Assembly: GCF_030733205.1 (NCBI RefSeq)
Contig: NZ_JASHJL010000043.1
Span: 1 to 45,147 of the forward strand
Length of the DNA stretch: 45,147 bases
Reading direction: 5' to 3'
Source of the DNA: Mameliella sp. MMSF_3455
GTDB lineage: Bacteria; Pseudomonadota; Alphaproteobacteria; Rhodobacterales; Rhodobacteraceae
Positions 22,201 to 44,643 of this stretch are shown here, piece by piece. Both the position numbers and the translations under genes were made by a program. The notes beneath the pieces are model-generated. The model did no database searches and was not told the origin of the DNA. It was given only the letters and a program-made list of their open reading frames with translations. Every line of letters begins with the position of its first letter. The stretch's first letter is position 1.

Positions 22201-23479
22201 GTTGAACACAGGTTATGCAGCCGGTGACAGCTATTTCGGGATCGAGGAAATCCGAGGAAGTGCTTACAGTGACGCTCTTTCTGGTGACATGACCGATGAC
22301 ACACTGCATGGCGATGCCGGGGCGGACGCCTTAGATGGTCGGGATGGAAACGACAGTCTGACTGGCGGCGCCGGCAATGATGTACTGACCGGCGGCGCCG
22401 GAGCCGACACGCTAGATGGTGGCGATGGCCTGGACTTCGCACTCTACTACGCCGCCGACAGCGCCTTTGTGGCTGACCTGCAAATCTCGGCGAACAATAC
22501 CGGTTCTGCCGCAGGAGACGTCTATATCTCGGTGGAGAACCTGACAGGCGGAAATGGCGACGACACTCTCCGCGGCGATACCGGCAGCAACCTCATCCAG
22601 GGACGGGGCGGCCATGACCAGATCCACGGTCGCAGCGGCAACGACAGTCTCGACGGCGGCACCGGCGATGATATCCTCTGGGGTGGCGCGGGAGCCGATA
22701 CTTTGAACGGTGGCGATGGCATCGACCGTGCCCAGTATTACACCACGGATAGCGGATTGGTCGCGGATCTGGCAACGCCTGGGAACAACAGCGGTGCTGC
22801 GGCCGGCGATATCTACATTGATATCGAGAACCTCCACGGCGGGGGCGGTGACGACACCCTGTATGGTGACGATGCCGAGAACGTTCTTTGGGGCGGCCTT
22901 GGCCATGATGAAATCCAGGGCCGCGCGGGCGACGACCTCCTGTCCGGCATGGACGGCAATGATAGTCTGATCGGCGGCCAAGGGGCGGATACGCTGAACG
23001 GCGGGGACGGTGTGGACCGGGCGCAATACAACACCGCGACAACGGCCGTGCGGGCCGATCTGGCCTCTCCGGGCGTCAATACCGGCGAGGCCGCTGGAGA
23101 CAGCTACATCAGCATCGAAAACCTGCATGGCGGCAATTTCTCGGATATTCTTTCCGGGGATGGATCTGCCAACACGATCTGGGGTGGCGGTGGAGACGAC
23201 ACGATCAGCGGTCGGGCCGGTGACGACATCCTCTTTGGTCATTCAGGTGCCGACACCTTCCGTTTCACAAGCGGATGGGACCACGATCAGATCAATGACT
23301 TCGAAGATGACGTCGACGAGATCCTGTTGTTCAACATGGGCTACGCCACGGTTCAGGATGCCCTGGCAGATGCCTCGCAACAAGGCAGCGACGTTGTATT
23401 CGATTTCGGGAACGGCGATACGCTGACAATCCTCAACGTCACGCTGGCTGATTTGCAGGACGATATCGTGCTAGCCTAG
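10271..23479 (+). CDS. Giant RTX-type secreted protein (4402 residues)
   Basis: A single uninterrupted reading frame. Order of parts: residues 1 to about 395, a Gly-rich unique region with no signal peptide; about 400-560, EF-hand-like DxDxDG motifs ([32 protein letters not shown]); about 631-1910, some 23 tandem 54-residue repeats each opening with a DLDGDG-type loop; about 1990-2300, DUF4214-like helical repeats; about 2308-3515, blocks of GGxGxD nonapeptides alternating with 'haemolysin-related' segments that end in IEEIxFxDGTxW; about 3520-3770, a second DUF4214 region; about 3890-4330, more RTX nonapeptides; and a C-terminal 70 residues of the type used as an uncleaved type I secretion signal. 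Such proteins are exported by HlyB/D/TolC-type machines and fold on binding calcium outside; adhesin or biofilm roles are common. No type I secretion genes are in the window. Codon use in the first 1.2 kb is AT-richer than the rest. Confidence 0.85.
12163..16000 (+). repeat. About 23 tandem 54-residue Asp-rich repeats
   Basis: Coding repeats inside the giant RTX gene (residues about 631-1910). Each unit is 50-58 residues and begins with a loop such as [18 protein letters not shown] or DSDGDGVFD. Next come strands rich in Thr/Val/Glu, a mid-unit 'xxDGSxxTxT', and a closing 'S-x-D-G-L-x-T-x' before the next loop. Units differ too much for recent duplication at DNA level. The DxDGDG loops imply calcium sites. 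This is distinct from the RTX nonapeptides further on. I do not know a named domain for it. Confidence 0.7.
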
Positions 23480-32086: not shown

Positions 32087-32167
32087 CCGCCAGTTCGAAC
32101 CTTTCCGGCCCAAAGCCGACACTCGAATTCACTGCCTACTCTGCAATGCAGCGAACCAAGAACAGTT

Positions 32168-33811
32168 TCATGAGCCATGTCTAAGACGATGCGTCCTTAT
32201 CGTCTTGAGCGCCTCCCGAACCATTGAAACCTGTCTCTCAGAAAGGGACAGCTCGCACGCCAATCTGCGGTCCGCGTGATCAAAGTTCGCTGCTTCAGGA
32301 GATTTAGATTGAGGAAATCTGTCGATGAACTCACGATACTGTAGCTCGGTCGGGTGTTGGAAATGTATTGGCACTCCTCTGAATTCTTTGGGTGTCAGCT
32401 CGAGGACACCGCCGCCGTAGAAGCGACCATCCATCTCACAAAACAGTAGCGCCAAACTGTTGTAGAACGAGAAGGTAAGATCCTGAATCGCAAAGCCTTT
32501 CCGCATCTTGACCTGATATGCCGTATCAGTCACTAGAACCCTTGCTTGGTTGATGCATAGTCTTGGAAAGCTGTGTGACCGCTTAAAAAATATCCCGTCA
32601 GATGCTTCAACTATCGGAATGTTGTACCAAGGCGAACGATGACGACACTTGTATCTTTGGTCGAGCCCCAGCTTTTCTCCTGCTGCGATGTAGGATTGCG
32701 CTTCCTGCGAAAGCGGTGGAGCTCCGTCACGTACAAAATCCAAAAGGAAAGCTGGTTCGCGTTTTGATATTTCAGCCAGGTCATCCTCTGAGAAAACAGG
32801 ACCTGATGGCAGGTAAGCACCCTTCTTCAGTATTGGGCGCGCCCATTGGCCCAATCCGCGATCACTGATTTCGTTGGACCTAAGGATGAAGAAGTCATTC
32901 GCCGCCGAGACCACTCCCGCGGAACTCGTCGCATAGTCGCCAAGCGTCTTCAGATTTGAGCGTAGCTTGTGTAACAAAGACGCCGTTTCGTCATCGAAGA
33001 AAATCGAGTTGAGGTCGATGGAACTCGCTTGCTTGCCGCTGAAGCAGATACTGCGGGATTTTATGGGTTCTAGCTTGGCTAGTGTCTTGACTGAGCTGAG
33101 CGTTACCCCAGAAATTGCCTTGGGCGCGGCTTTCGATGCCACCAAAGCGACAGCATCCTGATCAAGCTTGCGAAAGGCCTTATCTTGAGGCGTAAAGACC
33201 TCTACCGAAACGAAATTATCTACAAGAAATGCCTGAAGATACTGGCCATACTTTACGTTTAGGAGCTCATATGGAACGATAAACGCCAAGACACCTGTAT
33301 CGGACAAGAGCATGCTAGAGGCCACAACGAACGCGGCCCAGGCATTCTTAAGTTCCGAAAGTGGATAATCTGCGATCTGGCTGAGATCTTCGATACTTTT
33401 CATCAGCGCTCCGCCAAAATTATGGCGCCGGATGTAGGGCGGATTACCGATAACTAAATCGTATTTGGGCCCATCATGGGTGACGGCATATTCTATGAAG
33501 TCTTGGCACTTGAACTTCGCAGCCGGGAAATCCCTTTCTAGCAAGTCCGTAGCTGCCTGATCGATGTCAAGGCCGTGGACTCTTAAGCTGCCCTCTGTCA
33601 AAGCGGCAAGTGCGCGCAGAAAGGCGCCATCACCAGCACTAGGTTCCAGAATCGTGTTCGGTACTTTGTGACGCCTGGCCAAAGCGAATTTGGTCAGTTC
33701 CGACGCTACATCATCAGGCGTATATACCACGCCCAAAAGTCGCTCTATTCCTGGTTCAAGCTTCAAAAGCACGGCGACGGTACTCTCGATGTTCGCGTGT
33801 AACTCGAGCAA
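32168..33811 (-). CDS. N6-adenine DNA methyltransferase
   Basis: A 547-residue enzyme, last gene of the five-gene minus-strand operon. GVVYTP (27-32) is the family's N-terminal motif; motif I is EPSAGDGAF (56-64); the acidic end of the next strand is GLDID (80-84); motif IV is NPPY (123-126). This order is that of Eco57I/TaqI-type (gamma-class) N6-adenine methyltransferases. The C-terminal 300 residues, with 'GQWARPILKKGAYLPSG' and 'CRHRSPWYNIP', resemble the target-recognition part of TaqI-like enzymes. No nuclease domain is fused. It overlaps the HNH gene upstream by 56 bases and should either protect host DNA from that nuclease or mark DNA for it (inference). Complete. Confidence 0.87.
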   Translation of the reverse strand: MLELHANIESTVAVLLKLEPGIERLLGVVYTPDDVASELTKFALARRHKVPNTILEPSAGDGAFLRALAALTEGSLRVHGLDIDQAATDLLERDFPAAKFKCQDFIEYAVTHDGPKYDLVIGNPPYIRRHNFGGALMKSIEDLSQIADYPLSELKNAWAAFVVASSMLLSDTGVLAFIVPYELLNVKYGQYLQAFLVDNFVSVEVFTPQDKAFRKLDQDAVALVASKAAPKAISGVTLSSVKTLAKLEPIKSRSICFSGKQASSIDLNSIFFDDETASLLHKLRSNLKTLGDYATSSAGVVSAANDFFILRSNEISDRGLGQWARPILKKGAYLPSGPVFSEDDLAEISKREPAFLLDFVRDGAPPLSQEAQSYIAAGEKLGLDQRYKCRHRSPWYNIPIVEASDGIFFKRSHSFPRLCINQARVLVTDTAYQVKMRKGFAIQDLTFSFYNSLALLFCEMDGRFYGGGVLELTPKEFRGVPIHFQHPTELQYREFIDRFPQSKSPEAANFDHADRRLACELSLSERQVSMVREALKTIRTHRLRHGS

Positions 33812-34346
33812 TTTCCTGCAAGACAGACCGATAGTGCTCGGTATCCGCAGACAGTCGCGCTTCGAGTTCTAGCAGTTCGCCTAGTAGCTCATCCATTTTT
33901 TGGGTCTGCCAAACGAACTGGTGACGGATAAGCGACAAGTTCAAGTTCGCTATCATGTAACGACCAAGTTCGGTTTTGGCACGAATTCTACCGTGATTGT
34001 CTCGTTCAAGATGGTTGTCGAGATCCGGATCGCACGGATCTACAAAGCCACTCAATCCGTCATTGGGTACGTTTTTGTCATCTCCAATCCATTTGTTCGA
34101 CTTTGCGCGGTTACAAAAAGGGCATGAGTAGACCAAATTGCGGTACTCGAGTAACCATTCCGGGAACAAAGACTTCGGAGCAAAGTGGTCGATTTGATAA
34201 CCCCGCACTCCGCCAAAGAACTCGTCTAAGGCGTCGCAGTAGCCACATCTGCTAGAGAAATCTCTCCGCAAGTCTTCCTTGTAAGCGCGATAGGTAGTTT
34301 GCGCCGCAACTACCGAACGAACCGGTGTACCCTTCCGCAGCACCAC
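33756..34346 (-). CDS. HNH endonuclease
   Basis: A 196-residue protein with a full HNH/zinc pattern: C34-G-Y-C37, then IDHF (D53-H54), C75-P-F-C78-N79-x4-N84-K85. The two Cys pairs bind structural zinc; H54 and the Asn/Lys near 79-85 are the catalytic region. The C-terminal 80 residues are helical and charged. The start is GTG at 34346, sharing one base with the TAG of the receiver gene (TAGTG), so translation is coupled; its end overlaps the methyltransferase by 56 bases. Pairing with an adenine methyltransferase is that of a restriction-modification set, but here it is downstream of a kinase-like ATPase and a receiver, which is unusual. Confidence 0.85.
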   Translation of the reverse strand: MVLRKGTPVRSVVAAQTTYRAYKEDLRRDFSSRCGYCDALDEFFGGVRGYQIDHFAPKSLFPEWLLEYRNLVYSCPFCNRAKSNKWIGDDKNVPNDGLSGFVDPCDPDLDNHLERDNHGRIRAKTELGRYMIANLNLSLIRHQFVWQTQKMDELLGELLELEARLSADTEHYRSVLQEIARVTREHREYRRRAFEA

Positions 34347-35026
34347 TACGATCCACCCCGTTCGTCAGGCTCAGCAAGTTCGTTCTTGATCCTCTCTATC
34401 AGCTCTTCGGTGCGGCCAATCAACCGGTCGAATGGCTCTAAGGCCCGAACTTTCACATGGCGTTCGATTGCAAACTGAGCACCCAAGACAGCTTCCAGAT
34501 AGCTGTCGAGATCAAGGAATCTCTGAGTCTCGCTGGCATCCAGATCTCGTTCCAGAGCTTGTGCAGAGAGGTGCTCCAACTCTGCCTGAGCATCTGCAAC
34601 CTGTCTTTCGTGTTCCGCGATTTTCTTCCTTACTCGCTTGAAGAACGGGAGGTCGCTGTTTTTGGCCTCTTCACGATCCAAGAAATCGGATTTGGGAAAT
34701 ACCATGTTTGTGTCTAGGGTCTCATCAACAGCTTGGTCCGGAAATGATGTAGTAACGAAGCAAGGAAATTCGGCGAACCTATCCCTGAAGGCTCGAACTA
34801 AGTCCGCACCATTAAATTCTACATCTGGTTTGTGGTCTGATAGGCGGTAGTCTGTAATCAACACCTTGCAGTGCAATTCGGAAATCTGCTGAATGGTGTC
34901 ATCTAAGGTGCTCTCTGGTTCGATGGCTCGTACCTGATCCGGGGTGAATTCACCTGATGCCACGGCGCTTCTGAGAACTTGACCAGCCTGCGCCTTTTGC
35001 TCGTCGATATACACTAACTCTGCCAA
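34346..35026 (-). CDS. Receiver-domain protein with C-terminal coiled coil
   Basis: A 226-residue protein. The first 115 residues follow the CheY-like receiver layout: acidic pair D8-E9 (VYIDEQ), phospho-acceptor D59 (VLITDYRL), Thr/Ser at 92-94 (FVTTSFP) and K112 (MVFPKSDFL). All key places are filled, so phosphorylation is plausible. The rest is a long charged helix (about 120-220), probably a coiled coil, with no DNA-binding output domain. It starts 10 bases after the dual-GHKL gene and shares its last base with the HNH start. Because it lacks an HTH output, it probably passes the signal by protein contact, most simply to the HNH nuclease (inference). Confidence 0.8.
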   Translation of the reverse strand: MAELVYIDEQKAQAGQVLRSAVASGEFTPDQVRAIEPESTLDDTIQQISELHCKVLITDYRLSDHKPDVEFNGADLVRAFRDRFAEFPCFVTTSFPDQAVDETLDTNMVFPKSDFLDREEAKNSDLPFFKRVRKKIAEHERQVADAQAELEHLSAQALERDLDASETQRFLDLDSYLEAVLGAQFAIERHVKVRALEPFDRLIGRTEELIERIKNELAEPDERGGS

Positions 35027-35036
35027 GACCGTTTCC

Positions 35037-37523
35037 TTACTTCTTCAAAGGGAGGAGAATTTCCATCCGGAAACCTGGCTCTTTGCCCGGTCCGTATGCT
35101 CGGAATGAACCACCGTAGGCCTGTACGACGGCGGCCAATATCCACATCCCCAGTCCTGTGCCATTTGCCTGACCAGACGCATCGCGCTTGGTCGTGACAG
35201 CGAACTTAAAGATGCTCGCTGGATCGCGTATCGAGGGATCAAGGCCTGGACCGTTGTCACGATAGTTAATCCTAACTTGCGGCCCCGACTGTTCGACTTT
35301 GATTGTGATCTCGCGCGCGCCTTGATGTCGATCAGACAAGAGCGCTTCAACTGAGTTAAGGATTAGGTTGTTGAACACGCTGTCGAGATCTATCTCGAAG
35401 GCTAGCACGTTCACCTCTGAGGCTTCCTGGACGACATCGTAGGTGAGAGTGATGTGCCTCGGCTCCAAGAAGCCCTTCCATGTCTTCTTGGTTTTTTGCA
35501 GGTGCTGCTGCAAATTGATCTTTTTACGGCGCCGTTTGTCGGCTCGAATGGAAGACAGAGCGAAGGTAAACCATTGGCGTACCTTTTTGTCATCCTCTTC
35601 CCATTCTTCGAGTATCTCGAATGGATTGAACGCTCCGCCCACCCCCATGAGAGAGTCTCGATCGATATAGGACGACAAGATGTCCGAGAGCTCGGTTGAC
35701 CTCCCGCCCATCGTGTTCTGGAGTTGGCCCATTTCGTGTGAAAACGAAATTAACACCGTCCCTAGAGTCGCCAGAGCTCGCAGCATCGTCTGTTCGTCGC
35801 GAAGCTCCCTAATCTCTTCCTGCTGTGCGGTGTATGCCCTCGCAAGTGTTTGAGCGTCTTCAGGCGTCGCCTTTTCAGGCGCCTTAGTTACACGTGCCGC
35901 GGTTTCGGCGCCTTCACTCTTCGACTTTTCCGCCTCATTCTTGCTTTGGAAAAGGCGATTGAGGTTGTAGTGGATGTGGCTTCGATCATCTTCAAATTCC
36001 TGAATGACCCGTTTCACAAGCTCACGGAACGTCGCGAAATACTCGTTTTCGATGATCCCTTCACGGTTGGATTGGTCGTTTAACTTGGCGTTTTCGAGGC
36101 GTGAAATAGTCACTGTACCGGCTAAGTTCTGGGGGCTGACCTTCCAGCCCTTTCGTGATGCTTGAACAGGGCTGATCGCGACCCGCTGGCCGAGTGCGAG
36201 CCAATCAAAGGCTCGTCCACCCAACTCACCGTAAGGACGGACAGCGAAATTGTCCCGGTATATCTTCAGACCTCCGAACTCTTCAATCCATGCCTTTCTT
36301 GGTCCCGGTTGAAACGCCCGATACGGATAGATACGACCGTCTCGCGCGCTTGGTGCTCCCTTCTTGTAGAACCGGAGATTTACCTTAAAAGAGCCAAGCG
36401 CCTCAGCATTTCTTTTGAAGTCATCTGGCGCCCCTGGGAACAGCTCGTGCAAGGTTTTCGTGTATTTGAGCTCGGCCTTTCTGAATGACTTCTCATCGAA
36501 TGGAGCATCACTCATCTCATCGAGTTCGAACAGGTCCGGATCAATTCGATCGACATCAAGTTCGTTCCTCACAAGCGTGATCGTCACGGTTCCCTGCGAA
36601 GAAATCTCAGCATCAATCTTGTAGTCGTAGTCATTAAGAACTTCAGCAGTCACAACGCCATAGTTGCTCGGTTCTCGGGCATCAAAGAGAAAGAGATTAA
36701 GTACCCGCTGGTCTAGTGGAGGTATCAACTCGGCGAGCATCTTGTACAAATGCTGCACATCGCGTGCATGCCAATCATCTCGCAGCAAACCAATACGAAT
36801 AGCGGTACCCTTGAACCAATTGAAACCCTTTCCTGCCAGCTGCGAAACTGCGGTTGAGATAGGAGGGTGATCATCGAGAAACCGAAGCCTGTCATCCAAC
36901 GCAGTTTGGTCTTCTCTTAAGACGGCTTTGATATCTTCTAGCGTCTTGTCGGCGGCGTCGAAATCATCCCAGTTGACCACCCATTCCAAATTGCTGATGG
37001 CTTCACTTGTGGCTGAACTAGAGAACAGCTGACACTCTGATCCTAGACGATCGAGCGCAAATCTGCCAATTCCCTTGGCACCTGTCCGGGCTCTGCCACT
37101 TTCGGACGTCGCATTTTGCTCTTTATTGTTGGTGCCAATAACCATCCAATTGTCTTCGATGGTCTTCGCAGTCATGCCATCACCGTTGTCGATCAGCCAA
37201 AGATCTAGGAGGCCCGATGCCAGCTTGTCGACAACCTCGACGTTGAGATCGTAAGCAGCGTCGCGTCGCTCATAGCCCTCGGACTGCTGCGCGTAGAACT
37301 CTTCGATCTCTGGATGAATTTTGCGAAGTCGATCAAACTCAGACTTCTTCAGCCTACTGGGTGCATTATTGAACCTTGGAATAAAGCAAACTAGGCACAT
37401 TGTAGCGTCGGCATCGTATGTGTTTTTTACGAGTTCTGATATAGCACCTTCGGCGTTCGAAACGTTCTCGCGACCAAAGAGCCTGGCTGTCTTGGCAGCA
37501 ACTTTGAAAGAGAGTTCTCTCAT
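35037..37523 (-). CDS. Dual GHKL ATPase: MORC/Hsp90-like plus histidine-kinase-like
   Basis: An 828-residue protein. The N-terminal ATPase has E30-L-V-K-N34-x-Y-D-A-D, DNGDGM (112-117) and GAKGIGRFAL (148-157): the Hsp90/MutL/MORC type of GHKL fold, with the long lid typical of MORC-like members. A linker and a coiled coil (about 530-590) follow. The C-terminal 240 residues are a second GHKL unit: SFSHEM with a candidate phospho-His near 596, NNLILNSVEAL (N-box, about 718), DNGPGLDPS (G1, about 756) and GTGLGMWI (G2, about 788), as in histidine kinases. I used the ATG at 37523, which overlaps the HTH gene stop (ATGA); a longer frame from 37568 is in conflict with it. Likely a sensor-kinase with two ATP sites that signals to the receiver gene behind it (inference). 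Confidence 0.85.
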   Translation of the reverse strand: MRELSFKVAAKTARLFGRENVSNAEGAISELVKNTYDADATMCLVCFIPRFNNAPSRLKKSEFDRLRKIHPEIEEFYAQQSEGYERRDAAYDLNVEVVDKLASGLLDLWLIDNGDGMTAKTIEDNWMVIGTNNKEQNATSESGRARTGAKGIGRFALDRLGSECQLFSSSATSEAISNLEWVVNWDDFDAADKTLEDIKAVLREDQTALDDRLRFLDDHPPISTAVSQLAGKGFNWFKGTAIRIGLLRDDWHARDVQHLYKMLAELIPPLDQRVLNLFLFDAREPSNYGVVTAEVLNDYDYKIDAEISSQGTVTITLVRNELDVDRIDPDLFELDEMSDAPFDEKSFRKAELKYTKTLHELFPGAPDDFKRNAEALGSFKVNLRFYKKGAPSARDGRIYPYRAFQPGPRKAWIEEFGGLKIYRDNFAVRPYGELGGRAFDWLALGQRVAISPVQASRKGWKVSPQNLAGTVTISRLENAKLNDQSNREGIIENEYFATFRELVKRVIQEFEDDRSHIHYNLNRLFQSKNEAEKSKSEGAETAARVTKAPEKATPEDAQTLARAYTAQQEEIRELRDEQTMLRALATLGTVLISFSHEMGQLQNTMGGRSTELSDILSSYIDRDSLMGVGGAFNPFEILEEWEEDDKKVRQWFTFALSSIRADKRRRKKINLQQHLQKTKKTWKGFLEPRHITLTYDVVQEASEVNVLAFEIDLDSVFNNLILNSVEALLSDRHQGAREITIKVEQSGPQVRINYRDNGPGLDPSIRDPASIFKFAVTTKRDASGQANGTGLGMWILAAVVQAYGGSFRAYGPGKEPGFRMEILLPLKK

Positions 37524-37714
37524 GTCTGCCCCTCGTTCTTGCCACTCGCGGCTTGCGTATCCATCCACCGCCGGAGTTCGTCCGCTCGAAACCTCCAGCT
37601 ACCTCCCACCTTGAAACCAGGAATTTCAGACTGAGATGCAAGCCTGTAGGCGGTTTTCTCATTTATCTTCAGTAGCTTCGCAACTTCGGGGATAGTAAGA
37701 ATCTCATCATCCAT
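37520..37714 (-). CDS. Small helix-turn-helix (excisionase-type) protein
   Basis: A 64-residue protein: ILTIPEVAKLLKINEKTAYRLASQSEIPGFKVGGSWRFRADELRRWMD is the 'helix-turn-helix domain 17' or excisionase-like (MerR-related) pattern with recognition helix around 15-26 and the wing F-K-V-G-G-S-W-R-F. The ATG at 37714 was chosen, with AGGGAAC before it; a longer frame to 37771 looks non-coding. Its stop overlaps the ATG of the dual-GHKL gene, so it opens the operon. In defence loci such proteins are often autoregulators; it may bind its own promoter. It could also be a leftover excisionase of the element. Confidence 0.75.
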   Translation of the reverse strand: MDDEILTIPEVAKLLKINEKTAYRLASQSEIPGFKVGGSWRFRADELRRWMDTQAASGKNEGQT

Positions 37715-37902
37715 GTAGAAGTTCCCTGATTTTTGAGGAATATAATGGAAAATTTGCCAACCTGAAAGCAAAAGCTGGTGCGGCTAAAAAGAGTAACTCA
37801 TCGGCTGATTTCATTTCTCTTGTGAATGTGCCCACGCCGCGAAAGGCGGCTCTCCGCCCATACCGTTGAAAAAGTCTTCGTTGCAGCGCAATAACAGGAC
37901 GA

Positions 37903-38770: not shown

Positions 38771-39301
38771 TCAGTATTCACTGGCCAGCATGATGGTCAG
38801 CACGCGATGGGTGCGGGCTGGATTGGCCGCGTCGTCGGAATGGCGCTCCATCTCCAGATCGAAATAGTCGATCTTGAAAAAGAGCTTTTGCCCGTCGATT
38901 TCGAAGGCCCCGAAATCATGTTCGCCGTGCGGATCATTGTCTTCGCCGAACGCATCGAATGTCATCGTGCGTTCAAGCGCCTGTCTGACGAACTTGTCAC
39001 CTTCCGCCTGTACCCCGGCAGTCATGACGATGGTAGCATGCTCTGCTTGCCCCTGTCGCAGCAGGTCATTCAGGCGGCGAATGCGCTGTTGTCGGTACGC
39101 TTCGTCCACGCGCCAGTCCGGCACCTCTTCGTCACCGCAATTGTCGCAATTGAAATGGTCGAAGATCGCTTGGAGCTGCCAGTCTTGGCTGGCCATACTC
39201 CACGCGGCCCAGGCATCGCGCACCACCTGTTTCGAGCCGCAGCCAGGACAGATCGGATAGGCCCCGACCATATCCCAGATGTGGGATTTCTTGGTCCCCA
39301 T
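38771..39301 (-). CDS. DUF3768 protein with N-terminal zinc ribbon
   Basis: A 176-residue protein. The first part has C18-P-G-C21 and C52-D-N-C55, a four-Cys zinc ribbon. The second part, 'TAGVQAEGDKFVRQAL...FDAFGEDNDPHGEHDFGAF...FFKIDYFDLEMERHSDD', is the DUF3768 domain known from rhodobacterial and rhizobial plasmids. Function unknown; the conserved NDPHGEHDFG segment could be metal- or ligand-binding. The ATG at 39301 is seven bases behind AGGAG, which lies inside the leader hairpin described at 39299-39443. It is probably co-transcribed with the DUF932 gene, 79 bases further on. Confidence 0.82.
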   Translation of the reverse strand: MGTKKSHIWDMVGAYPICPGCGSKQVVRDAWAAWSMASQDWQLQAIFDHFNCDNCGDEEVPDWRVDEAYRQQRIRRLNDLLRQGQAEHATIVMTAGVQAEGDKFVRQALERTMTFDAFGEDNDPHGEHDFGAFEIDGQKLFFKIDYFDLEMERHSDDAANPARTHRVLTIMLASEY

Positions 39302-39443
39302 GATGGTTCTCCTTTCGTAGGGTGGCCGCCCGAAGGGAGTTCAGGCGCACCCTTCGAAAGGAGAGAAAGAACGATCCTTTTCTATTGTTGACGGAACTGC
39401 ACGAGCCAGCAACTCCTCCTCATCTGCAAATTTCGCAGATGCC
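39299..39443 (-). promoter_or_regulatory. Leader with SD-covering hairpin and operator-like palindrome, copy 2
   Basis: CTCCTTTCGTAGGGTG (39309-39324) and CACCCTTCGAAAGGAG (39348-39363) pair with one mismatch. On the minus-strand RNA the AGGAG used by the DUF3768 ATG at 39301 is inside this stem. A perfect palindrome CATCTGC-(7)-GCAGATG at 39421-39441 may be an operator for the divergent promoters of the DUF3768 and the ATPase gene to the right. It is the better preserved of the two copies. Confidence 0.65.
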
Positions 39444-39498
39444 AAGCGAAGGACGGGGGCACTACGCTAGCCGCGCCAATGGGGGCAAACTGGGCGGC

Positions 39499-40650
39499 AT
39501 GGCAGTCTTTCCCATCACCCCCACCGCCCTTGGTCTGGCGTATTCACGCTATGGCGATAGGCTATCTGCGATCCGGCAGGTGGACCGGCTCCTGCACATG
39601 TATATCGTTGGCCAGACCGGGGTCGGAAAATCAACCTTGCTCGGACGCATGGTGGAACAGGACGATGCCGCCGGACGTGGGTTCTGTCTCATCGATCCTC
39701 ATGGCGACCTCGCCGAAGCCGTTCATGCATGCTGCCCGGACGCCCTTTATTGGAACGTCGCCGACCCGGCCTCACCCTACGGATACAACCCGCTCACCAG
39801 AACCTCACCTGCGCTGCGTCCGTTGGTGACGTCCGGTCTCATTGAGGCACTGCGCAAACAATGGGCCGATGCCTGGGGCGTGCGAATGGAACATCTGCTG
39901 CGTCATGCGATCTTGGCGTTGCTGGATTGTCCTGACGCGGACCTGCGCGACATACCCCGATTGTTTCTCGATCGAAGTTTCCGGGTCGAGGTGCTGACGC
40001 ATGTCACCGACCCCCAGGTGCGACAGTTTTGGACGGCGGAATATCCGGCGATGAACTACAAAAACGCTTCTGATGGTTTTGCACCCATCGCGAACAAGCT
40101 GGGAGCCTTTCTTTCCCACCCAACGGTTCGGCAAGCCCTCTGCGAGCCGGAACAGCCACTGCGGTTCCGCGCCATCATGGACCAGGGGCAGGGGCTGATT
40201 GTGAACCTGGCCAAGGGGCGTCTCGGAGCCGACGTCGCCAATGTTCTTGGTGGTATTTTGGTGTCCAGTATCACCCATGCCGCCTTCACGCGCCACGACA
40301 TCCCGGAAGCCGCCCGACGTCCGTTCTTCCTCTACGTTGACGAATTCCACAGCTTCACTACCGAGGCCGTGGCAGATCTCTTGTCCGAGACTCGAAAGTA
40401 CCGACTGGGGTTGATCCTCGCTCAACAGCACATTCAGCAGACCGTACCGCCGGTCTTCGCCTCGATCATCGGCAACGCCGGGACCATGATTGTGTTCCGG
40501 GTCGGTGCCAGTGACGCGCTACTGCTAGCTGCCCATCTTGGGCTGGAGCATCCTGGTGACTTGCTGACGCAGCCGAACTACCGGGCCAACGTGCGCATGA
40601 TGCTCGACAACGCGCCTAGTCGAGCGTTTTCGATGCGTACATGTCCTTGA
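39499..40650 (+). CDS. HerA/VirD4-type ATPase (second putative transfer ATPase)
   Basis: A 383-residue protein. I used the ATG at 39499 (MAVFPITPTALG), since the extension to 39322 is translated leader. Walker A is VGQTGVGKST (about 37-46), followed by 'FCLIDPHGDLAEAV'; Walker B is FLYVDEFHSF (about 277-286), and 'LGLILAQQHIQQ' is the arginine/glutamine sensor strand. The protein belongs to the HerA/FtsK/VirD4 group but has no N-terminal membrane anchor, unlike the ATPase at 24830-26905. The C-terminus ends in 'RAFSMRTCP', shortly before the recombinase module, and may be natural or slightly trimmed. Possible jobs are DNA pumping in transfer or a HerA-like role; the family call is firm, the role is not. 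Confidence 0.78.
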   Translation: MAVFPITPTALGLAYSRYGDRLSAIRQVDRLLHMYIVGQTGVGKSTLLGRMVEQDDAAGRGFCLIDPHGDLAEAVHACCPDALYWNVADPASPYGYNPLTRTSPALRPLVTSGLIEALRKQWADAWGVRMEHLLRHAILALLDCPDADLRDIPRLFLDRSFRVEVLTHVTDPQVRQFWTAEYPAMNYKNASDGFAPIANKLGAFLSHPTVRQALCEPEQPLRFRAIMDQGQGLIVNLAKGRLGADVANVLGGILVSSITHAAFTRHDIPEAARRPFFLYVDEFHSFTTEAVADLLSETRKYRLGLILAQQHIQQTVPPVFASIIGNAGTMIVFRVGASDALLLAAHLGLEHPGDLLTQPNYRANVRMMLDNAPSRAFSMRTCP

Positions 40651-40711
40651 CTGCAGGACGCGCCGTTCCGGCCCACTACAACCCTCGATCGCAGGCCGGT
40701 ATCCTGCCAAC

Positions 40712-40858
40712 ATGAACCATGAAGAGCACCTGCAAGAACACCTCGCCATCTGCAAAGCAGTGGTCGAACACCTCAAAGCAACCGGGCGGTGGCCGTGGCG
40801 TGATTCGCAATTTTCCGAGGATTTGGTAGAGTCGGACGGTAACAACGACGACGCATGA
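40712..40858 (+). CDS. Small protein coupled to serine recombinase
   Basis: A 48-residue ORF, MNHEEHLQEHLAICKAVVEH...GRWPWRDSQFSEDLVESDGN and TGA, too short for most gene finders. It is His/Glu-rich at the N-terminus and ends in an acidic tail. Its stop overlaps the ATG of the recombinase (ATGA), and similar small ORFs precede recombinases of this kind in rhodobacterial genomes (from memory). It may be a directionality factor or simply a translational coupler. The ATG at 40712 has a weak ribosome site. Confidence 0.6.
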   Translation: MNHEEHLQEHLAICKAVVEHLKATGRWPWRDSQFSEDLVESDGNNDDA

Positions 40859-42351
40859 AACCCTGTTTTGGATACATCCGGGTTTCCACCCAGAAGCAAG
40901 GTTTGGGAGTATCTCTGGAAGCTCAACAAGAAGCCATCACGCGGTTTGCGAGTCAGCACAATCTCGACGTCATCCAATGGTTTGAGGAAAAAGAAACCGC
41001 CGCCAAGCGAGGCAGGCCCATATTCAACCACATGTTGCGACAGCTCAAGCGCGGCAAGGCGGCAGGGCTGATCATGCACAAGATCGACCGTTCCGCTCGA
41101 AATCTGCGGGACTGGGCGCTGGTTTCAGAACTGCCGAGCCAGGGCATTGACCTGTTCTTCGCCACGGAGACACTGGACTTCCAATCAAGGGGAGGGCGGC
41201 TGGCCGCCAACTTGCAAGCGGTCATCGCCGAGGACTACATCCACAATCTCCGCGAAGAAACGATCAAAGGTCTGGCTGGACGGCTCAAGCAGGGTTTGTA
41301 TCCGTTTCGCGCCCCCATAGGGTATCTCGACAACGGTCGCGGACAACCGAAAACACCTTGCCCGGTCAAAGCCCCCTTGGTCCGCCAAGCCTTTGAACTC
41401 TACGCGTCAAACCAACACTCGTTGCGTACTCTCCTAGCGGAAATGCACCGCTTAGGGCTGCGAAACCACGACAACAAGCCGCTGTCGCTGCACGGCCTGG
41501 AAACCATCCTGAATAATCCTTTCTACACCGGCACCATCGTCATCAAACGCACCGGGGCCGTCTACCAGGGGCAACACAAAGCTATCGTACCGACCCGGCT
41601 GTTCCAGCGCGTGCAGGAGATCAAGACCGGCAAGTCAGGCAAGAAGGTTACGCGCCACAACCACTTGTATCGCGGTCTCTTCCGTTGCGGGCTATGCTCT
41701 GGACCCATGTCCCCGGAAAGACAGAAGGGGCGCGTCTACTATCGCTGTCAGCTTTCGTCCTGTCCGACGACCACCGTACGTGAGGACAGTATCGACAAAG
41801 CGGTCACCACGGAGCTTCGCCGTTGGCAACTTGCCGATACCGATGTCGCCCGGCTGTTCAAGCAGTGGAGTGCGGAACTCGATAGCGGTGAGCCGGAGAA
41901 GCTGTTGGCGTCCTACGAACTGCAAATCGCTCAATTGAACGCGAAGCTTGATCGACTGATGGACTTGCTGCTCGACGGCACTATCGGCCAGAATGACTAC
42001 AATGAACGCCGGCTGAAACTGAAGTTCGACATCGAGTCTCTTGAGGAGATGGCCCGAGAACTGGGCGAATCCCGCATCACAGACGCGCAAACCGCAGATT
42101 TACTCGAACTCCTAAAAAGCCTTGCCCAGCTTCATATTCTGGGAAATACGTCAACAAAACGCCGAATCGTCGAAAATTGCTTCTCGAACCGGACAGTGAT
42201 CGGAAAAAACCTTTATTTAGAGCCATATAATTGGCTTCAGAAGGCAAAATTTTCCGAACTGTCCCCTTTGGTGACCCAGAACGATACACTTCTCGAACTC
42301 TTACGTGGTGACTGCAGGCCGGAGGGAGATGAGCTGGACGAGGCAGCGTGA
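40855..42351 (+). CDS. Large serine recombinase
   Basis: A 498-residue recombinase, complete. The resolvase domain opens with FGYIRVST, with catalytic S11 and R9; 'KRGRPIFNHMLRQL...GLIMHKIDRSARNLRDW' carries the conserved D-R-S-x-R. The recombinase domain follows (FRAPIGYL...ILNNPFYTG), then a zinc ribbon (CGLCSGPM...YYRCQLSSCP) and a C-terminal coiled coil of about 100 residues. It fits the large serine integrase/transposase group that moves elements by site-specific exchange. The ATG at 40855 overlaps the small ORF before it. About 1.2 kb downstream begins a truncated relative; DNA identity is high over about 115 bases at the start of that copy and about 95 bases at the end. Confidence 0.9.
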   Translation: MKPCFGYIRVSTQKQGLGVSLEAQQEAITRFASQHNLDVIQWFEEKETAAKRGRPIFNHMLRQLKRGKAAGLIMHKIDRSARNLRDWALVSELPSQGIDLFFATETLDFQSRGGRLAANLQAVIAEDYIHNLREETIKGLAGRLKQGLYPFRAPIGYLDNGRGQPKTPCPVKAPLVRQAFELYASNQHSLRTLLAEMHRLGLRNHDNKPLSLHGLETILNNPFYTGTIVIKRTGAVYQGQHKAIVPTRLFQRVQEIKTGKSGKKVTRHNHLYRGLFRCGLCSGPMSPERQKGRVYYRCQLSSCPTTTVREDSIDKAVTTELRRWQLADTDVARLFKQWSAELDSGEPEKLLASYELQIAQLNAKLDRLMDLLLDGTIGQNDYNERRLKLKFDIESLEEMARELGESRITDAQTADLLELLKSLAQLHILGNTSTKRRIVENCFSNRTVIGKNLYLEPYNWLQKAKFSELSPLVTQNDTLLELLRGDCRPEGDELDEAA

Positions 42352-42472
42352 TCGCTGGAACGTCTACCTATCCCGCCGCTAGCACCCAGTCCCCCTTACA
42401 GGGTTTTGCTGAGCGTCTTTTGGATTTTTCTGGATGAAATCAAGACAGGTGGGACCTACGTCCACTTTGTTA

Positions 42473-42922
42473 TCATGGTGCAGAAGGAACGTATCCCTGC
42501 CAAATGTCATATGCGTCTCTTAGGATTCGGTACGCTCGATCACCAACTTCAACGATTATTTCTTCTTGTTCTCCGCGGCGGCCAAACTCGACTACTAACT
42601 CAATGAACTCAAGTCGCTTAAGAGTGCTTATGCCTTCGAAACTGTACGAGAATACAATCTTCGTATCTTCAAATATTGGTCGTCCTTCGTCTCGTGAGAA
42701 ATAGGCGCCTTTGGCTGAGCCTTGGACCGTAGCCCCTCCAACTATAGTAGTTAGAGCCTCAACCAATATGTGCACTTCCTCCATCTGTCTGCCTACGTCT
42801 TCTTCCTGCAATGTTTTTCCATGGCTGTCCTTTCTTGGGAAGAAGCTGGGAATGTAATATGTCACCTTCGAGTTTGATGCGTCGGTATCAAAGAAGCTAT
42901 CTGTATCACCGGATGTAGACAC
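42473..42922 (-). CDS. Hypothetical protein (DUF3574-like pattern)
   Basis: A 149-residue protein beginning with GTG at 42922, eight bases behind GGAGAG. Pattern: a strand 'VTYYIPSFFPRKDSHG', a helix 'EEVHILVEALTTIVGGATVQGSAKGAYF', and a strand 'RPIFEDTKIVFSYSFEG'. The order 'P-S-x-D-x-x-G ... L-x-x-L-x-x-x-G-G-A-T ... G-x-W/Y ... E-D-T-x-I-V-x-S-Y' is reminiscent of DUF3574-type proteins of unknown role; the match is by memory and loose. Codon use is AT-richer than the flanking recombinases. It is the second gene of a minus-strand pair placed between the two recombinase copies, 29 bases behind the other gene. Confidence 0.55.
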   Translation of the reverse strand: MSTSGDTDSFFDTDASNSKVTYYIPSFFPRKDSHGKTLQEEDVGRQMEEVHILVEALTTIVGGATVQGSAKGAYFSRDEGRPIFEDTKIVFSYSFEGISTLKRLEFIELVVEFGRRGEQEEIIVEVGDRAYRILRDAYDIWQGYVPSAP

Positions 42923-42951
42923 GTGTTACCCTCTCCAAAAAAAATCAACCC

Positions 42952-43539
42952 TCACTTTTCAAAGGGTTGACCAGTCCTATTGATTTGTATGGCCCCAGTA
43001 ACAAGTTTCATCTCTTGAACAGTTAGCTCTGAGCCTTCCAGCAATTTTTTTGCGATTTCAGGGTGCTGGGTTTTTATCGCATTAACCTTTCTGGCCAGTG
43101 AGTTCTGTACGCGTGCTAGTAACGCATTTGTCTCATTGGTCAGAGGGCTTCGACCCTCCCAATTTGAGAACCCTGCGTCGCTTTCGAAATTGTACCAATC
43201 CGATTTCGTGCGGGACATGCCACCCTCCTTTTGAGGAGCAGTGCCGTGTTGCGCGTCGCTGAAGGTGTCTTCAGAGGAGCGCTCAACCGGCACTCCTCGC
43301 AATTTACTTTGATCACCCCTATTCAGATTAACAAATCTCAGATTTTGTCGCAAGATTGACGAGGTGTCAATGGAAGTGGTGGATATTCGCGGAGCCGTGG
43401 TTTTGTTGTCCCATTTTTCCAAAATGCGGGTCGCAATTTTTTGGACAACTCCTCTTGGGTTCGTGGGTAAGGAAGCTGTTCCAGCCTTTACAGTAATCGC
43501 ATCTTTGGGCTGGAAGAAAGCGTGCTTTAGATTAAACAT
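42952..43539 (-). CDS. Hypothetical cargo protein between recombinase copies
   Basis: A 195-residue protein of unknown family. I chose ATG at 43539 (MFNLKHAFFQPKDA), nine bases behind AGGAG; the longer frame to 43677 would be translated from the opposite strand of the truncated recombinase and is rejected. It is basic and polar, with a disordered middle (ERSSEDTFSDAQHGTAPQKEGG) and a helical C-terminus (NALLARVQNSLARKVNAIKTQHPEIAKKLLEG). No signal peptide or membrane segment is seen. AT-rich codon use suggests a different origin from the recombinases. It forms a likely operon with the 149-residue gene; an antiphage or toxin-antitoxin role is possible, but there is no direct sign of it. Confidence 0.5.
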   Translation of the reverse strand: MFNLKHAFFQPKDAITVKAGTASLPTNPRGVVQKIATRILEKWDNKTTAPRISTTSIDTSSILRQNLRFVNLNRGDQSKLRGVPVERSSEDTFSDAQHGTAPQKEGGMSRTKSDWYNFESDAGFSNWEGRSPLTNETNALLARVQNSLARKVNAIKTQHPEIAKKLLEGSELTVQEMKLVTGAIQINRTGQPFEK

Positions 43540-43575
43540 CTTGGGAAAACTCCTGCTCGATTTCTTCCAGACGTA

Positions 43576-44643
43576 TGGTTTGAGGAAAAAGAAACCGCCG
43601 CCAAGCGAGGCAGGCCCATATTCAATCACATGTTGCGCCAGCTCAAACGCGGCAAGGCGGCGGGTCTGATCATGCACAAGATCGACCGTAGCGCTCGATA
43701 CCTACGCGACTGGGCCGATCTTGGCGATGCTATCGACCTCGGCATCGATGTGCGCTTCGTACATGATCCGATCGACCTGCACACCCGTGGTGGACGCCTC
43801 ACTGCTGATATCCAAGCAGTCATCGCCGCTGACTTCATTCGCAACCTGCGGGAGGAGGTGCGCAAGGGTATCCAGGGGCGACTGCGCCAGGGCTTCTATC
43901 CTTTTAAGGCACCGCGTGGCTACCTTGATGCCGGTCCTCGCCAGGTCAAACGTCCTGATCCAGCAATCGCACCGCTCATTGTTTTCGCCTTCCAGCGCTA
44001 TGCCTGCGGTACGGTGAGTTTGGCCCAGCTCGGGAAGACACTCCATGAGCGCGGACTGGAGACCAAAGCAGGCACACCCCTAACCCCCGGCATTCTCTCC
44101 GCCATCCTCCATAATCCCTTCTACAAAGGCACCGTTGTCGTCAAAGGCCAACATTTCGATGGTCATCATCAACCGCTGGTGACCGAAGCGCTCTTTGACA
44201 AGGTGCAGAAAGTGTTCGAGTCCAAGAAGCAACGCCGACGAACCAAGCATCATTTCCGCTACCGACAAACGCTACGGTGCACTACGTGTGGCCGTCACTT
44301 GGTCGGTGAGCAACAAAAGGGACGGGTGTATTATCGGTGCCAGCGGCGGCACGTTTGTGTGCGGGAAGACCGCATTTCGGCCCAAGATGACAGATATGAG
44401 CTTTTTTCAGGGGTACTTGCGCCCGAAAACGGCCAACTGGAGCCCTGGGGAAAGTTCGATTCCCCGAGGGGTATTGACCAACCGCAGGATTCGACTTGTG
44501 ATAAATGGCTTAGCTGAGCGGTATAATACGCGAAACACCTCCGTTTGGAGGTGTTTCGAGTGGTGACCCAGAACGACACACTTATCGAACTTTTGCGCAA
44601 TGAGCGCAGGCCGGAGGGAGATGAGTTGGATGAGGCAGCGTGA
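43576..44643 (+). pseudogene. N-terminally truncated serine recombinase remnant
   Basis: A homologue of the intact recombinase that begins abruptly at codons for WFEEKETAAKRGRPIFNH (43576), so the catalytic Ser and Arg are missing. It runs through the D-R-S-x-R and recombinase segments (GLIMHKIDRSARYLRD; AILHNPFYKGT) and zinc ribbon (CTTCGRHLVGEQQKGRVYYRCQ) to about 44380, then leaves homology and stops at 44517. The last 27 codons of the intact gene recur at 44563-44643 (VTQNDTLIELL...DELDEAA, TGA). The piece between (about 44385-44562) replaces the coiled coil and includes a strong hairpin. Not functional as a recombinase by itself. Confidence 0.8.
44531..44558. repeat. Perfect 12-bp hairpin inside recombinase remnant
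   Basis: CGAAACACCTCC, loop GTTT, GGAGGTGTTTCG: 12 perfect pairs directly before the resumed recombinase tail. TATAAT lies just upstream at 44523-44528. No T-run follows. It could be the end of an inserted segment, a recombination site or a terminator. Confidence 0.55.

What the first reader, a model, noticed from the sequence alone, without database searches (positions are those of the whole stretch)
32168..37714. Five-gene operon linking a dual-GHKL kinase-like ATPase and a receiver to an HNH nuclease and an adenine methyltransferase
Order HTH, dual GHKL (MORC/Hsp90-like plus histidine-kinase-like), receiver with intact Asp59, HNH, N6-adenine methyltransferase; all on the minus strand with overlaps or 10-base gaps, so they are almost certainly one functional unit. 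GHKL ATPases beside restriction enzymes are known (MORC relatives), and two-component-like phage defence (Detocs) is known, but I know of no described system with this full set. Model (inference): the N-terminal GHKL unit senses damage or foreign DNA, the C-terminal unit phosphorylates the receiver, and the receiver switches the HNH nuclease, with the methyltransferase giving self-recognition.
Basis: partly seen in the sequence, partly recalled or inferred. Interest (0 to 1): 0.9.

Follow-up and report, generated by a model that had tools for sequence, protein, structure and literature searches.

The report
Phosphorelay-linked HNH restriction cassette
A compact mobile gene cassette joins a DNA-clamp-like ATPase fused to a signalling kinase, its partner receiver protein, a DNA-cutting enzyme and a DNA-marking enzyme, suggesting that bacteria and phages may switch a restriction-type defence by passing a phosphate.

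Summary
Five minus-strand genes (32168-37714) encode an excisionase-type HTH, an 828-aa protein with a MORC-like GHKL and a histidine-kinase half, a 226-aa receiver, a PtuB-like HNH nuclease and an M.Eco57I-type adenine methyltransferase. In two genomes 95% identity ends 145 bp before and 63-65 bp after the operon: a discrete cassette. The HTH recurs in only 3 of 21 other loci. GHKL-receiver-HNH are adjacent in 22 of 22 full-length loci found of this kinase clade (Pseudomonadota, Bacteroidota, Deinococcota, viral contigs); a methyltransferase is beside them in 21, and one contig ends first. His596, Asp59 and HNH His54/Asn79 never vary in these. In a 53-kinase tree the clades follow the partner: HNH, MBL-fold protein, receiver-fused protein, or the published HEF_HK type. 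Dual-GHKL kinases with receivers beside restriction-modification genes were reported in 2021 (PMC8011034); neither of that paper's Pfam domains matches here, but the kinases are full-length homologues. No PADLOC, NCBIfam or Pfam hit names the set. Verdict: a real, conserved new branch of a known kind for which I saw no functional test. Most likely a restriction or defence module switched by phosphotransfer; the switching itself is inference.

The parts
32103..37859 (-). Whole cassette: the stretch shared at 95% identity with L009 and L010, whose other held DNA does not match the window
   Evidence: (blastn, E <= 1e-10): 32103-37859 in L009, 32105-37859 in L010; L011 (76%) 32172-37769; no other match in their held flanks
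37520..37714 (-). 64-aa excisionase/MerR-type HTH; accessory of this sub-branch, probably an operon regulator
   Evidence: HTH_17 3.9e-17; MAD1 model NF047737 67.5 bits, under its cut-off of 80; in 3 of 21 other HNH-type loci
35037..37523 (-). 828-aa dual-GHKL protein: N-terminal MORC-like GHKL half, long helices, DHp-like helix with His596, C-terminal histidine-kinase ATPase
   Evidence: AlphaFold2 model pLDDT 77.0, pTM 0.59; Foldseek matches to HK853-RR468 (6.4e-12) and MORC2 with DNA (6.6e-11); motifs
36981..37454 (-). HATPase_c_3 (residues 24-181), the N-terminal GHKL domain; Asp112, Gly114, Gly116, Gly148, Lys150, Gly151, Gly153 in 22 of 22
35736..35738 (-). His596 codon, predicted phospho-accepting histidine; invariant in 22 of 22 HNH-type kinases and in the 21-row and 18-row wider alignments
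35043..35393 (-). HATPase_c (residues 711-827), histidine-kinase catalytic domain; N719, N723, G758, G788, G790, G792 in 22 of 22; D756 and G760 in 21 of 22
34346..35026 (-). 226-aa receiver protein: receiver fold plus C-terminal helices (128-217), no DNA-binding domain detected
34850..34852 (-). Asp59 codon, predicted phospho-acceptor; with Asp8, Thr93, Lys112 invariant in 22 of 22
33756..34346 (-). 196-aa PtuB-like HNH nuclease; His54, Asn70, Asn79, Lys82 in 22 of 22
32168..33811 (-). 547-aa N6-adenine DNA methyltransferase, M.Eco57I/BseCI type
   Evidence: M_Eco57I_C 7.8e-26; PADLOC type II MTase 8.7e-118; BseCI 7qw5 6.4e-30
33434..33445 (-). NPPY motif of the methyltransferase (residues 123-126); NPP in 21 of 21, Tyr in 18 of 21

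Best explanation
The cassette is a mobile restriction-type defence module whose nuclease is gated by a two-component phosphorelay. The adenine methyltransferase marks the host's own DNA (inferred from family). The N-terminal MORC-like GHKL half of the 828-aa protein works as an ATP-driven clamp that engages foreign, unmethylated or phage DNA, alone or with the methyltransferase as reader (inference). Clamp closure changes the dimer so that the C-terminal kinase half phosphorylates His596 (residues shown, reaction inferred) and passes the phosphate to Asp59 of the receiver (residues and fold shown, reaction inferred). The phosphorylated receiver, which has no detectable DNA-binding output domain, activates the adjacent HNH nuclease by protein contact (inference from fixed gene order, matched divergence and exchange of the partner in sister clades). 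The HNH then cuts DNA lacking the methyl mark. The HTH of this sub-branch probably regulates expression.
For: One unit: GHKL-receiver-HNH adjacent, same strand, spacers -41 to +19 bp in 22 of 22 loci; MTase downstream in 19, upstream in 2, contig ends in 1. Of plasmid HNH relatives at E <= 1e-12, 5 of 5 sit beside a kinase and receiver gene (the Rhizobium kinase, L017, is broken). Matched divergence over 18 loci: kinase-receiver r 0.91, receiver-HNH 0.86, kinase-HNH 0.84, kinase-MTase 0.73; 0 of 2000 shuffles as high for each. Phosphorelay residues kept: His596, Asp8, Asp59, Thr93, Lys112 in 22 of 22. Folds: the kinase model matches HK853-RR468 and MORC2 with DNA (aligned ranges are not printed, so that MORC2 matches the N-terminal half is my inference from the domain hits); receiver fold. 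The partner changes with kinase clade: HNH 22 rows in one clade (98/93), MBL 6 (100/100), receiver-fused 9 (100/98), HEF_HK 6 (100/100), so the receiver plausibly drives an exchangeable effector. Mobility and defence setting: discrete cassette; phage-type genes near the six of eight viral-contig copies whose neighbours were scanned; after a TnsE gene in L012.
Against: I saw no experiment on this branch or, in the passages seen, on dual-GHKL kinase/receiver systems. L103 has Asn and Thr at kinase positions 756 and 760, and L098 has His at 597. In 3 of 5 MBL-clade receivers aligned (L022, L087, L053) the Lys is not kept, and in 2 (L083, L077) a Lys lies one column off, so not every member of the superfamily need run a normal phosphorelay. 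Three HNH copies (L071, L074, L098) lost one Cys of each Cys pair. The HNH has no recognised target-reading domain. Residues 181-220 of the receiver model have pLDDT 60-70, so its contact with the HNH is unknown; complexes were not predicted. The MORC2 match has a modest TM-score (0.27/0.45, rmsd 8.9). Matched divergence shows co-inheritance, not contact.
Confidence: 0.55

Rival explanations
1. A MORC-clamp restriction system without phosphotransfer: both GHKL units are only ATP-driven conformational motors and the receiver is a structural adaptor that holds the HNH.
For: VcSduA (paraMORC3 type with a nuclease domain, no kinase half described in the passages) is a tested defence protein whose GHKL is hypothesised to control the nuclease (PMC12137116 passages). 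L103 has a changed kinase G1 box; 3 of 5 MBL-clade receivers lack the Lys.
Against: His596 and the receiver residues D8, D59, T93, K112 are invariant in 22 of 22 loci spanning several phyla; an adaptor would not need them.
Confidence: 0.2
2. Abortive infection of Detocs type: the kinase senses infection (not DNA methylation), the receiver unleashes the HNH on all DNA including the host's, and the methyltransferase is a loosely coupled or immunity partner.
For: Detocs is a 'defensive two-component system' of three genes (PMC11249213 passage; exchangeable effectors recalled); the MTase is the least co-inherited part and of another type or place in L071, L103, L050; PtuB is named as retron-Ec78 effector nuclease.
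Against: A DNA methyltransferase is beside the kinase in 21 of 22 loci and NPP is kept in 21 of 21; 7 of 9 sister-clade neighbour genes scanned are DNA methyltransferases. Against this counter-argument: some relatives (L088, L091, L093, L094, L096) show no adjacent annotated methyltransferase.
Confidence: 0.15
3. Expression control: kinase, receiver and HTH regulate transcription of an otherwise ordinary HNH/MTase R-M pair, as controller proteins do.
For: An HTH heads the operon in the window and three relatives; R-M systems often carry regulators (general knowledge).
Against: No homologue of the HTH was found beside the kinase in 18 of 21 other HNH-type loci (other regulator types upstream not excluded, L098 has a CI-like gene there); the receiver shows no DNA-binding domain; in a sister clade the receiver is fused to a domain without Pfam match.
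Confidence: 0.07
4. Chance neighbours: an R-M pair next to an unrelated two-component pair.
For: The MTase family is common elsewhere (53 plasmid records).
Against: 22 of 22 synteny across phyla and viral contigs, overlapping genes, one shared cassette boundary.
Confidence: 0.02

Closest known systems
HEF_HK (PF19191) / Response_reg_2 (PF19192) TCS-like elements with R-M systems, Bellieny-Rabelo 2021 (PMC8011034)
   Same: HATPase_c_3 + His-bearing helix + HATPase_c architecture, receiver-like gene adjacent, R-M genes nearby; kinases homologous end to end (hhalign probability 100, E 3.1e-47).
   Different: No PF19191 or PF19192 hit here (E up to 1); receiver 226 aa against 542-595 aa in the six I aligned and profile comparison only 9%; N6 Eco57I-type MTase and PtuB-like HNH instead of mostly C5 MTase/Vsr; separate clade in the kinase tree.
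paraMORC1 with HNH (Iyer 2008, PMC2292703)
   Same: N-terminal GHKL beside HNH and methyltransferase genes.
   Different: The text has 0 occurrences of receiver or two-component.
Detocs
   Same: Two-component-type defence operon.
   Different: Three genes with a PNP effector in the best-described case; here HNH plus DNA methyltransferase and a MORC-like N-terminal half.
Septu / retron-Ec78 PtuB
   Same: HNH effector related (PADLOC PtuB 66.8 bits; TIGR02646 43.1 bits).
   Different: Below the NCBIfam cut-offs (52.15 and 150 bits); no PtuA-type ATPase among the five genes; a receiver gene instead.
VcSduA (paraMORC3-Shedu type I-D, PMC12137116)
   Same: GHKL ATPase hypothesised to control a defence nuclease; MORC-like clamp idea.
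   Different: Single protein with PD-(D/E)xK nuclease; no receiver or methyltransferase described as part of it in the passages seen.
Type II R-M with M.Eco57I / M.BseCI methyltransferase
   Same: MTase family and nuclease neighbour.
   Different: Adds an ATPase-kinase and a receiver; nuclease has no recognised target-reading domain.

Membership tests
HEF_HK / Response_reg_2 TCS-like R-M elements (PMC8011034) | HEF_HK domain PF19191 in the kinase | tested here: not met
   no PF19191 hit at E <= 1; no match in G000 at E <= 1e-5, while 9 of 398 sampled genomes of the phylum have one
HEF_HK / Response_reg_2 TCS-like R-M elements (PMC8011034) | Response_reg_2 domain PF19192 in the partner | tested here: not met
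   no hit; positive control L032 partner hits PF19192 at 1.1e-31; profile comparison 9%
HEF_HK / Response_reg_2 TCS-like R-M elements (PMC8011034) | HATPase_c_3 at the N-terminus, His-bearing helix, HATPase_c at the C-terminus, homologous over full length | tested here: met
HEF_HK / Response_reg_2 TCS-like R-M elements (PMC8011034) | receiver-like partner gene adjacent and R-M genes nearby | tested here: met
   MTase type differs (N6 rather than mainly C5)
Detocs | PNP effector of the best-described case | tested here: not met
   no PNP Pfam hit in any of the five proteins
Detocs | kinase and receiver homologous to DtcA and DtcB (names recalled) | not tested
   no such sequence was fetched; no Detocs-named PADLOC model is among the hits shown, but whether that library holds one was not checked
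MADS | MAD1 HTH over the NCBIfam cut-off | tested here: not met
   NF047737 67.5 bits, cut-off 80
MADS | MAD2 and further mad genes | tested here: inconclusive
   MTase matches mad2 only in part (56.9 bits) and a type II MTase far better (392.6); no other mad model in the hits shown for the five proteins; flanking genes not scanned against PADLOC
Septu / retron-Ec78 (PtuB) | PtuB over curated cut-off, with PtuA ATPase | tested here: not met
   NF041761 30.0 of 150 bits, TIGR02646 43.1 of 52.15; no PtuA-type ATPase among the five genes (the PtuA model hits are to the HNH protein)
Two-component system | DHp His plus HATPase_c, and REC with acidic pair, Asp, Thr, Lys | tested here: met
   (22 of 22, except E597 19, E9 20, D756 21, G760 21 of 22)
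Two-component system | phosphotransfer from kinase to receiver | not testable with these tools
   needs biochemistry
Type II restriction-modification | N6-adenine MTase with NPPY | tested here: met
Type II restriction-modification | nuclease cutting at the site that the MTase protects | not testable with these tools
   needs methylome and cleavage assays

The most novel reading that the evidence does not exclude
The cassette is the first restriction-type system whose DNA nuclease is switched on post-translationally by a His-Asp phosphorelay fed from a MORC-like DNA clamp, and it is one branch of a superfamily of phosphorelay-gated, methylation-linked defence systems in which each kinase clade has adopted its own effector (HNH, MBL-fold, receiver-fused domain, Response_reg_2).
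Probability: 0.45. Interest if true: 0.82.

Novelty: new variant of a known kind. Interest (0 to 1): 0.64.

Why it matters
Two-component phosphorelays are known mainly for controlling transcription or motility, and restriction nucleases are usually gated by methylation alone or by translocation (general knowledge). A conserved operon that hard-wires a histidine kinase and receiver to a nuclease and a methyltransferase would be a different way of licensing DNA cleavage. It would also put MORC-type ATPases, whose bacterial members 'remain poorly understood' (PMC8011034), into a chain with a chemical read-out (phosphate on Asp59). The four-gene unit is about 5.4 kb, occurs on plasmids and in viral contigs, and each step has a predicted key residue, so the question can be tested directly.

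Tried and rejected
Rejected: chance neighbourhood (22 of 22 synteny); the HTH as a core part (3 of 21 other loci); plain membership in the 2021 HEF_HK/Response_reg_2 family (domains not met); Septu or Detocs-PNP membership (see table; MADS only partly tested).

Led nowhere: viral-contig scan with the single protein (none of 23 candidates confirmed; the profile scan, then found 13); phages collection (one weak partial hit); promoter and terminator scan (2 promoter-like and 4 terminator-like sites, below the shuffled means of 4.0 and 6.6); a Detocs paper search (none) and a MADS paper search (unrelated papers in the ten listed); the pdb_via library (not on the machine). In the dN/dS script the L011 methyltransferase was given a wrong start by me and is not counted; its ORF 11752-13368 is open; two L011 dS values were saturated (HTH, HNH).

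Rows left out of the 22-locus counts: L017 (Rhizobium, kinase in two ORFs, receiver and HNH present, no MTase found), L021 (Klebsiella plasmid, kinase in three ORFs, MTase-kinase-receiver-HNH order) and L080/G1152 (kinase fragments with stops, no receiver or HNH hit). They were described only. L041, L110, L111 and L112 are second copies of L009, L102, L098 and L103; L001 and L014 are short copies. For the distance test L009, L010 (near copies), L097 (no MTase in the held DNA) and L102 (MTase cut) were left out. L050 was found through its HNH, so it is not an independent test; the other 20 besides the window were found through the kinase. Pfam scans of sister-clade neighbours took 10 proteins each, chosen by me. 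In one search the L085 neighbour scanned was an unrelated gene and L053's gave no hit. Of the six kinases labelled MBL in the tree, a Lactamase_B hit was seen for five (L022, L087, L083, L077; L053 at 22.6 bits, just under the cut-off of 22.7); L019 rests on the record's own annotation, and the part scanned had no hit. The tree flags long branches and composition differences.

Full report
OBSERVATION. The window is contig C50 of a 5.7-Mb genome; two loci 98% identical in the kinase are named uncultured Rhodobacteraceae and uncultured Tateyamaria in their records. Domain hits: HTH_17; HATPase_c_3 and HATPase_c in one 828-aa protein; HNH; M_Eco57I_C/Eco57I. The receiver has no receiver-domain Pfam hit, but its family profile finds solved receivers and its model has the receiver fold (the best Foldseek hits are mostly response regulators, E 1.6e-4 and weaker).

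CASSETTE. Blastn of the window against L009 and L010 gives one block of 95%, 32103-37859 (32105 in L010), and nothing else in their held flanks; L011 gives 76% over 32172-37769. So the five genes with short flanks move as a unit between different surroundings. dN/dS of the five genes against L009 and L010 is 0.04-0.13: all are kept working. The neighbourhood carries a TrwB-like coupling protein, a large serine recombinase and a partial second one. A profile search of 101 genomes (own genome and relatives) found the full-length kinase in the own genome only at E <= 1e-60.

CONSERVED CORE. Loci of the same kinase type came from one scan of genome contigs (5), plasmids by kinase (L015, L016, L018 with full sets, L017 broken), plasmids by HNH (L050), sampled genomes in the phylum of the Lentimicrobiaceae MAG (L071-L074) and viral contigs (8 of 13 loci, L097-L104). 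With the window there are 22 full-length loci. In 22 of 22 the receiver and then the HNH follow the kinase directly, with spacers of -41 to +19 bp. The methyltransferase is downstream in 19, upstream in 2 (L103, L050), and one contig ends before it (L097). In L071 the downstream methyltransferase is another Eco57I-family type (55 bits to the family profile; Pfam Eco57I 5.4e-31). The HTH was found beside the kinase in 3 of the 21 other loci (L009, L010, L011).

SPECIFICITY OF THE LINK. Of plasmid records with an HNH relative at E <= 1e-12, 5 of 5 have the kinase and receiver beside it, one of them with a broken kinase; with a receiver relative at E <= 1e-4, 3 of 3. In viral contigs 3 of 5 HNH loci are the same system; L113 and L114 are short ORFs (122 aa) with no kinase hit in the held DNA. 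In nine genomes with the system, the HNH profile also found four weaker HNH proteins (E 2e-13 to 6e-7) elsewhere, three in G805 and one in the own genome. The methyltransferase is a common type: 53 plasmid records at E <= 1e-30, of which three (Ensifer, Salipiger, Bacteroides) are records of this system and the others were not examined. Distance matrices agree best for kinase and receiver (r 0.91), then receiver-HNH (0.86), kinase-HNH (0.84), kinase-MTase (0.73), receiver-MTase (0.63) and HNH-MTase (0.61) over 18 loci, 0 of 2000 shuffles as high for each. Related loci raise such correlations by descent alone, so this shows co-inheritance, not contact.

ACTIVE SITES. Kinase His596, N719, N723, G758, G788, G790, G792: 22 of 22; D756 and G760: 21 of 22 (L103 differs); E597: 19 of 22. 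N-terminal GHKL D112, G114, G116, G148, K150, G151, G153: 22 of 22; E30, N34, D37: 21 of 22 (the called L016 ORF starts later, because an IS66 element lies between its first 28 codons and the rest). Receiver D8, D59, T93, K112: 22 of 22; E9: 20 of 22. HNH C34, H54, N70, C75, N79, K82: 22 of 22; D53: 21; C37 and C78: 19 (lost in L071, L074, L098). MTase NPP: 21 of 21.

STRUCTURE. The kinase model (mean pLDDT 77.0, pTM 0.59) matches histidine kinases, best HK853 from its complex with receiver RR468 (6.4e-12), and also MORC2 with DNA (6.6e-11; TM-scores 0.27/0.45). The output gives no aligned ranges; with the domain hits I read this as a MORC-like module joined to a kinase module. No complex was modelled.

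WIDER FAMILY. Relatives with other partners turned up: MTase, kinase, receiver, MBL-fold protein (Burkholderia L022, Hymenobacter L087, L083, L077; in L053 the upstream gene gave no MTase hit); C5 MTase, kinase, receiver fused to an unknown domain (C5 hits in 5 of 5 such upstream genes scanned: L052, L075, L076, L078, L081); kinase with a protein of about 635-680 aa (L020, L088, L093, L094, L096); and HEF_HK kinases of about 990-1155 aa (nine loci), six of them with an adjacent 542-595-aa partner (PF19192 confirmed for L032, the only one scanned). In a tree of 53 kinases, HNH (22), MBL (6), receiver-fused (9) and HEF_HK (6) each form one clade; the mixed group 'other' (10) does not. Some long branches (L050 and L103 among them) and composition differences are flagged in that tree. 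Sampled prevalence of full-length matches to this type: 2 of 398 genomes of the own phylum, only the own genome of 385 in its class, 5 of 296 in the phylum of G748, the centre included, and 1 of 274 in the class of G747 (the centre) plus one broken copy. In these four searches only the top two or three candidates per genome were scored, so the counts are lower bounds.

PRIOR ART. PMC8011034 (abstract, text parts 1-4 of 7 and Discussion read) describes dual-GHKL HEF_HK proteins with Response_reg_2 partners and an excess of R-M domains nearby, chiefly C5 MTases, with Vsr, HNH_2 and N6/N4 MTase neighbours, and speculates on control of R-M systems. PMC2292703 (passages) describes paraMORCs in R-M operons, including paraMORC1 with HNH. 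PMC12137116 (passages) shows a GHKL-Shedu defence protein at work. Paper searches led to eight papers that I opened (the three above and, by passages, PMC12839542, PMC10952713, PMC11249213, PMC7824862, PMC3710099); in what I saw of them none describes this kinase-receiver-HNH-Eco57I-MTase set. Other listed papers were not opened, and the library holds open-licence papers only. Scans of the window proteins against PADLOC 2.0.0, NCBIfam 20 and Pfam gave no hit that names the set. Three receiver-fused relatives hit the PADLOC candidate models PDC-M60B or PDC-M60C weakly (E 1.6e-4 to 1.5e-3); no PDC-M60 model was among the hits shown for the window proteins.

MECHANISM. Shown: gene set, order, cassette boundary, selection, residues, predicted folds of single chains. 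Inferred: DNA sensing by the MORC-like half, phosphotransfer, activation of the HNH by the receiver, self-marking by the MTase. I put 0.55 on the whole chain and consider a defence or restriction role of some kind much more likely than that.

VERDICT. A real and conserved operon, a new branch of a published kind for which I saw no functional test; interesting because the predicted control step is unusual and directly testable.

Noticed in passing
L052, L076, L078, L081, L082, L085, L089, L091, L075 (receiver-fused proteins): The C-terminal domain (conserved PxCD and RFSxYYxRQGxP motifs) had no clear Pfam match in any of the nine and no NCBIfam match in the five scanned; it is related to the C-terminus of Response_reg_2 proteins (hhalign 92%, E 5e-7). 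Probably an unnamed effector domain.
   Followed up: partly
L022, L087, L053, L083, L077 (MBL-type receivers): The Lys equivalent to Lys112 is not kept in L022, L087 and L053 and lies one column off in L083 and L077, although the Asp is kept; the phosphorelay there may be unusual.
   Followed up: no
L012 1-8000: The Pseudocolwellia copy lies directly after a TnsE gene; four upstream same-strand ORFs have sizes that fit TnsABCD (recalled, not scanned), so it may be cargo of a Tn7-like transposon.
   Followed up: partly
L097-L104: Eight copies lie in viral contigs; flanking genes scanned from L098, L099, L100, L101, L103 and L104 include phage tail, endolysin, neck, CII-like, integrase and DNA polymerase families, suggesting that temperate phages carry the system.
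   Followed up: partly
L016 5451-8094: In Salipiger plasmid pTPRO7 an IS66 element separates the first 28 codons of the kinase from the rest.
   Followed up: no
window 10271-23479, + strand: A single ORF of 4402 aa, not examined.
   Followed up: no
window 38771-44517: DUF3768 protein, TrwB-like coupling protein, a large serine recombinase and a partial second one: plasmid- or ICE-like surroundings.
   Followed up: partly
L020, L088, L093, L094, L096: Dual-GHKL kinases followed by a protein of about 635-680 aa; the one scanned (L093) has no clear Pfam, NCBIfam or PADLOC match. A further uncharacterised branch on plasmids.
   Followed up: no
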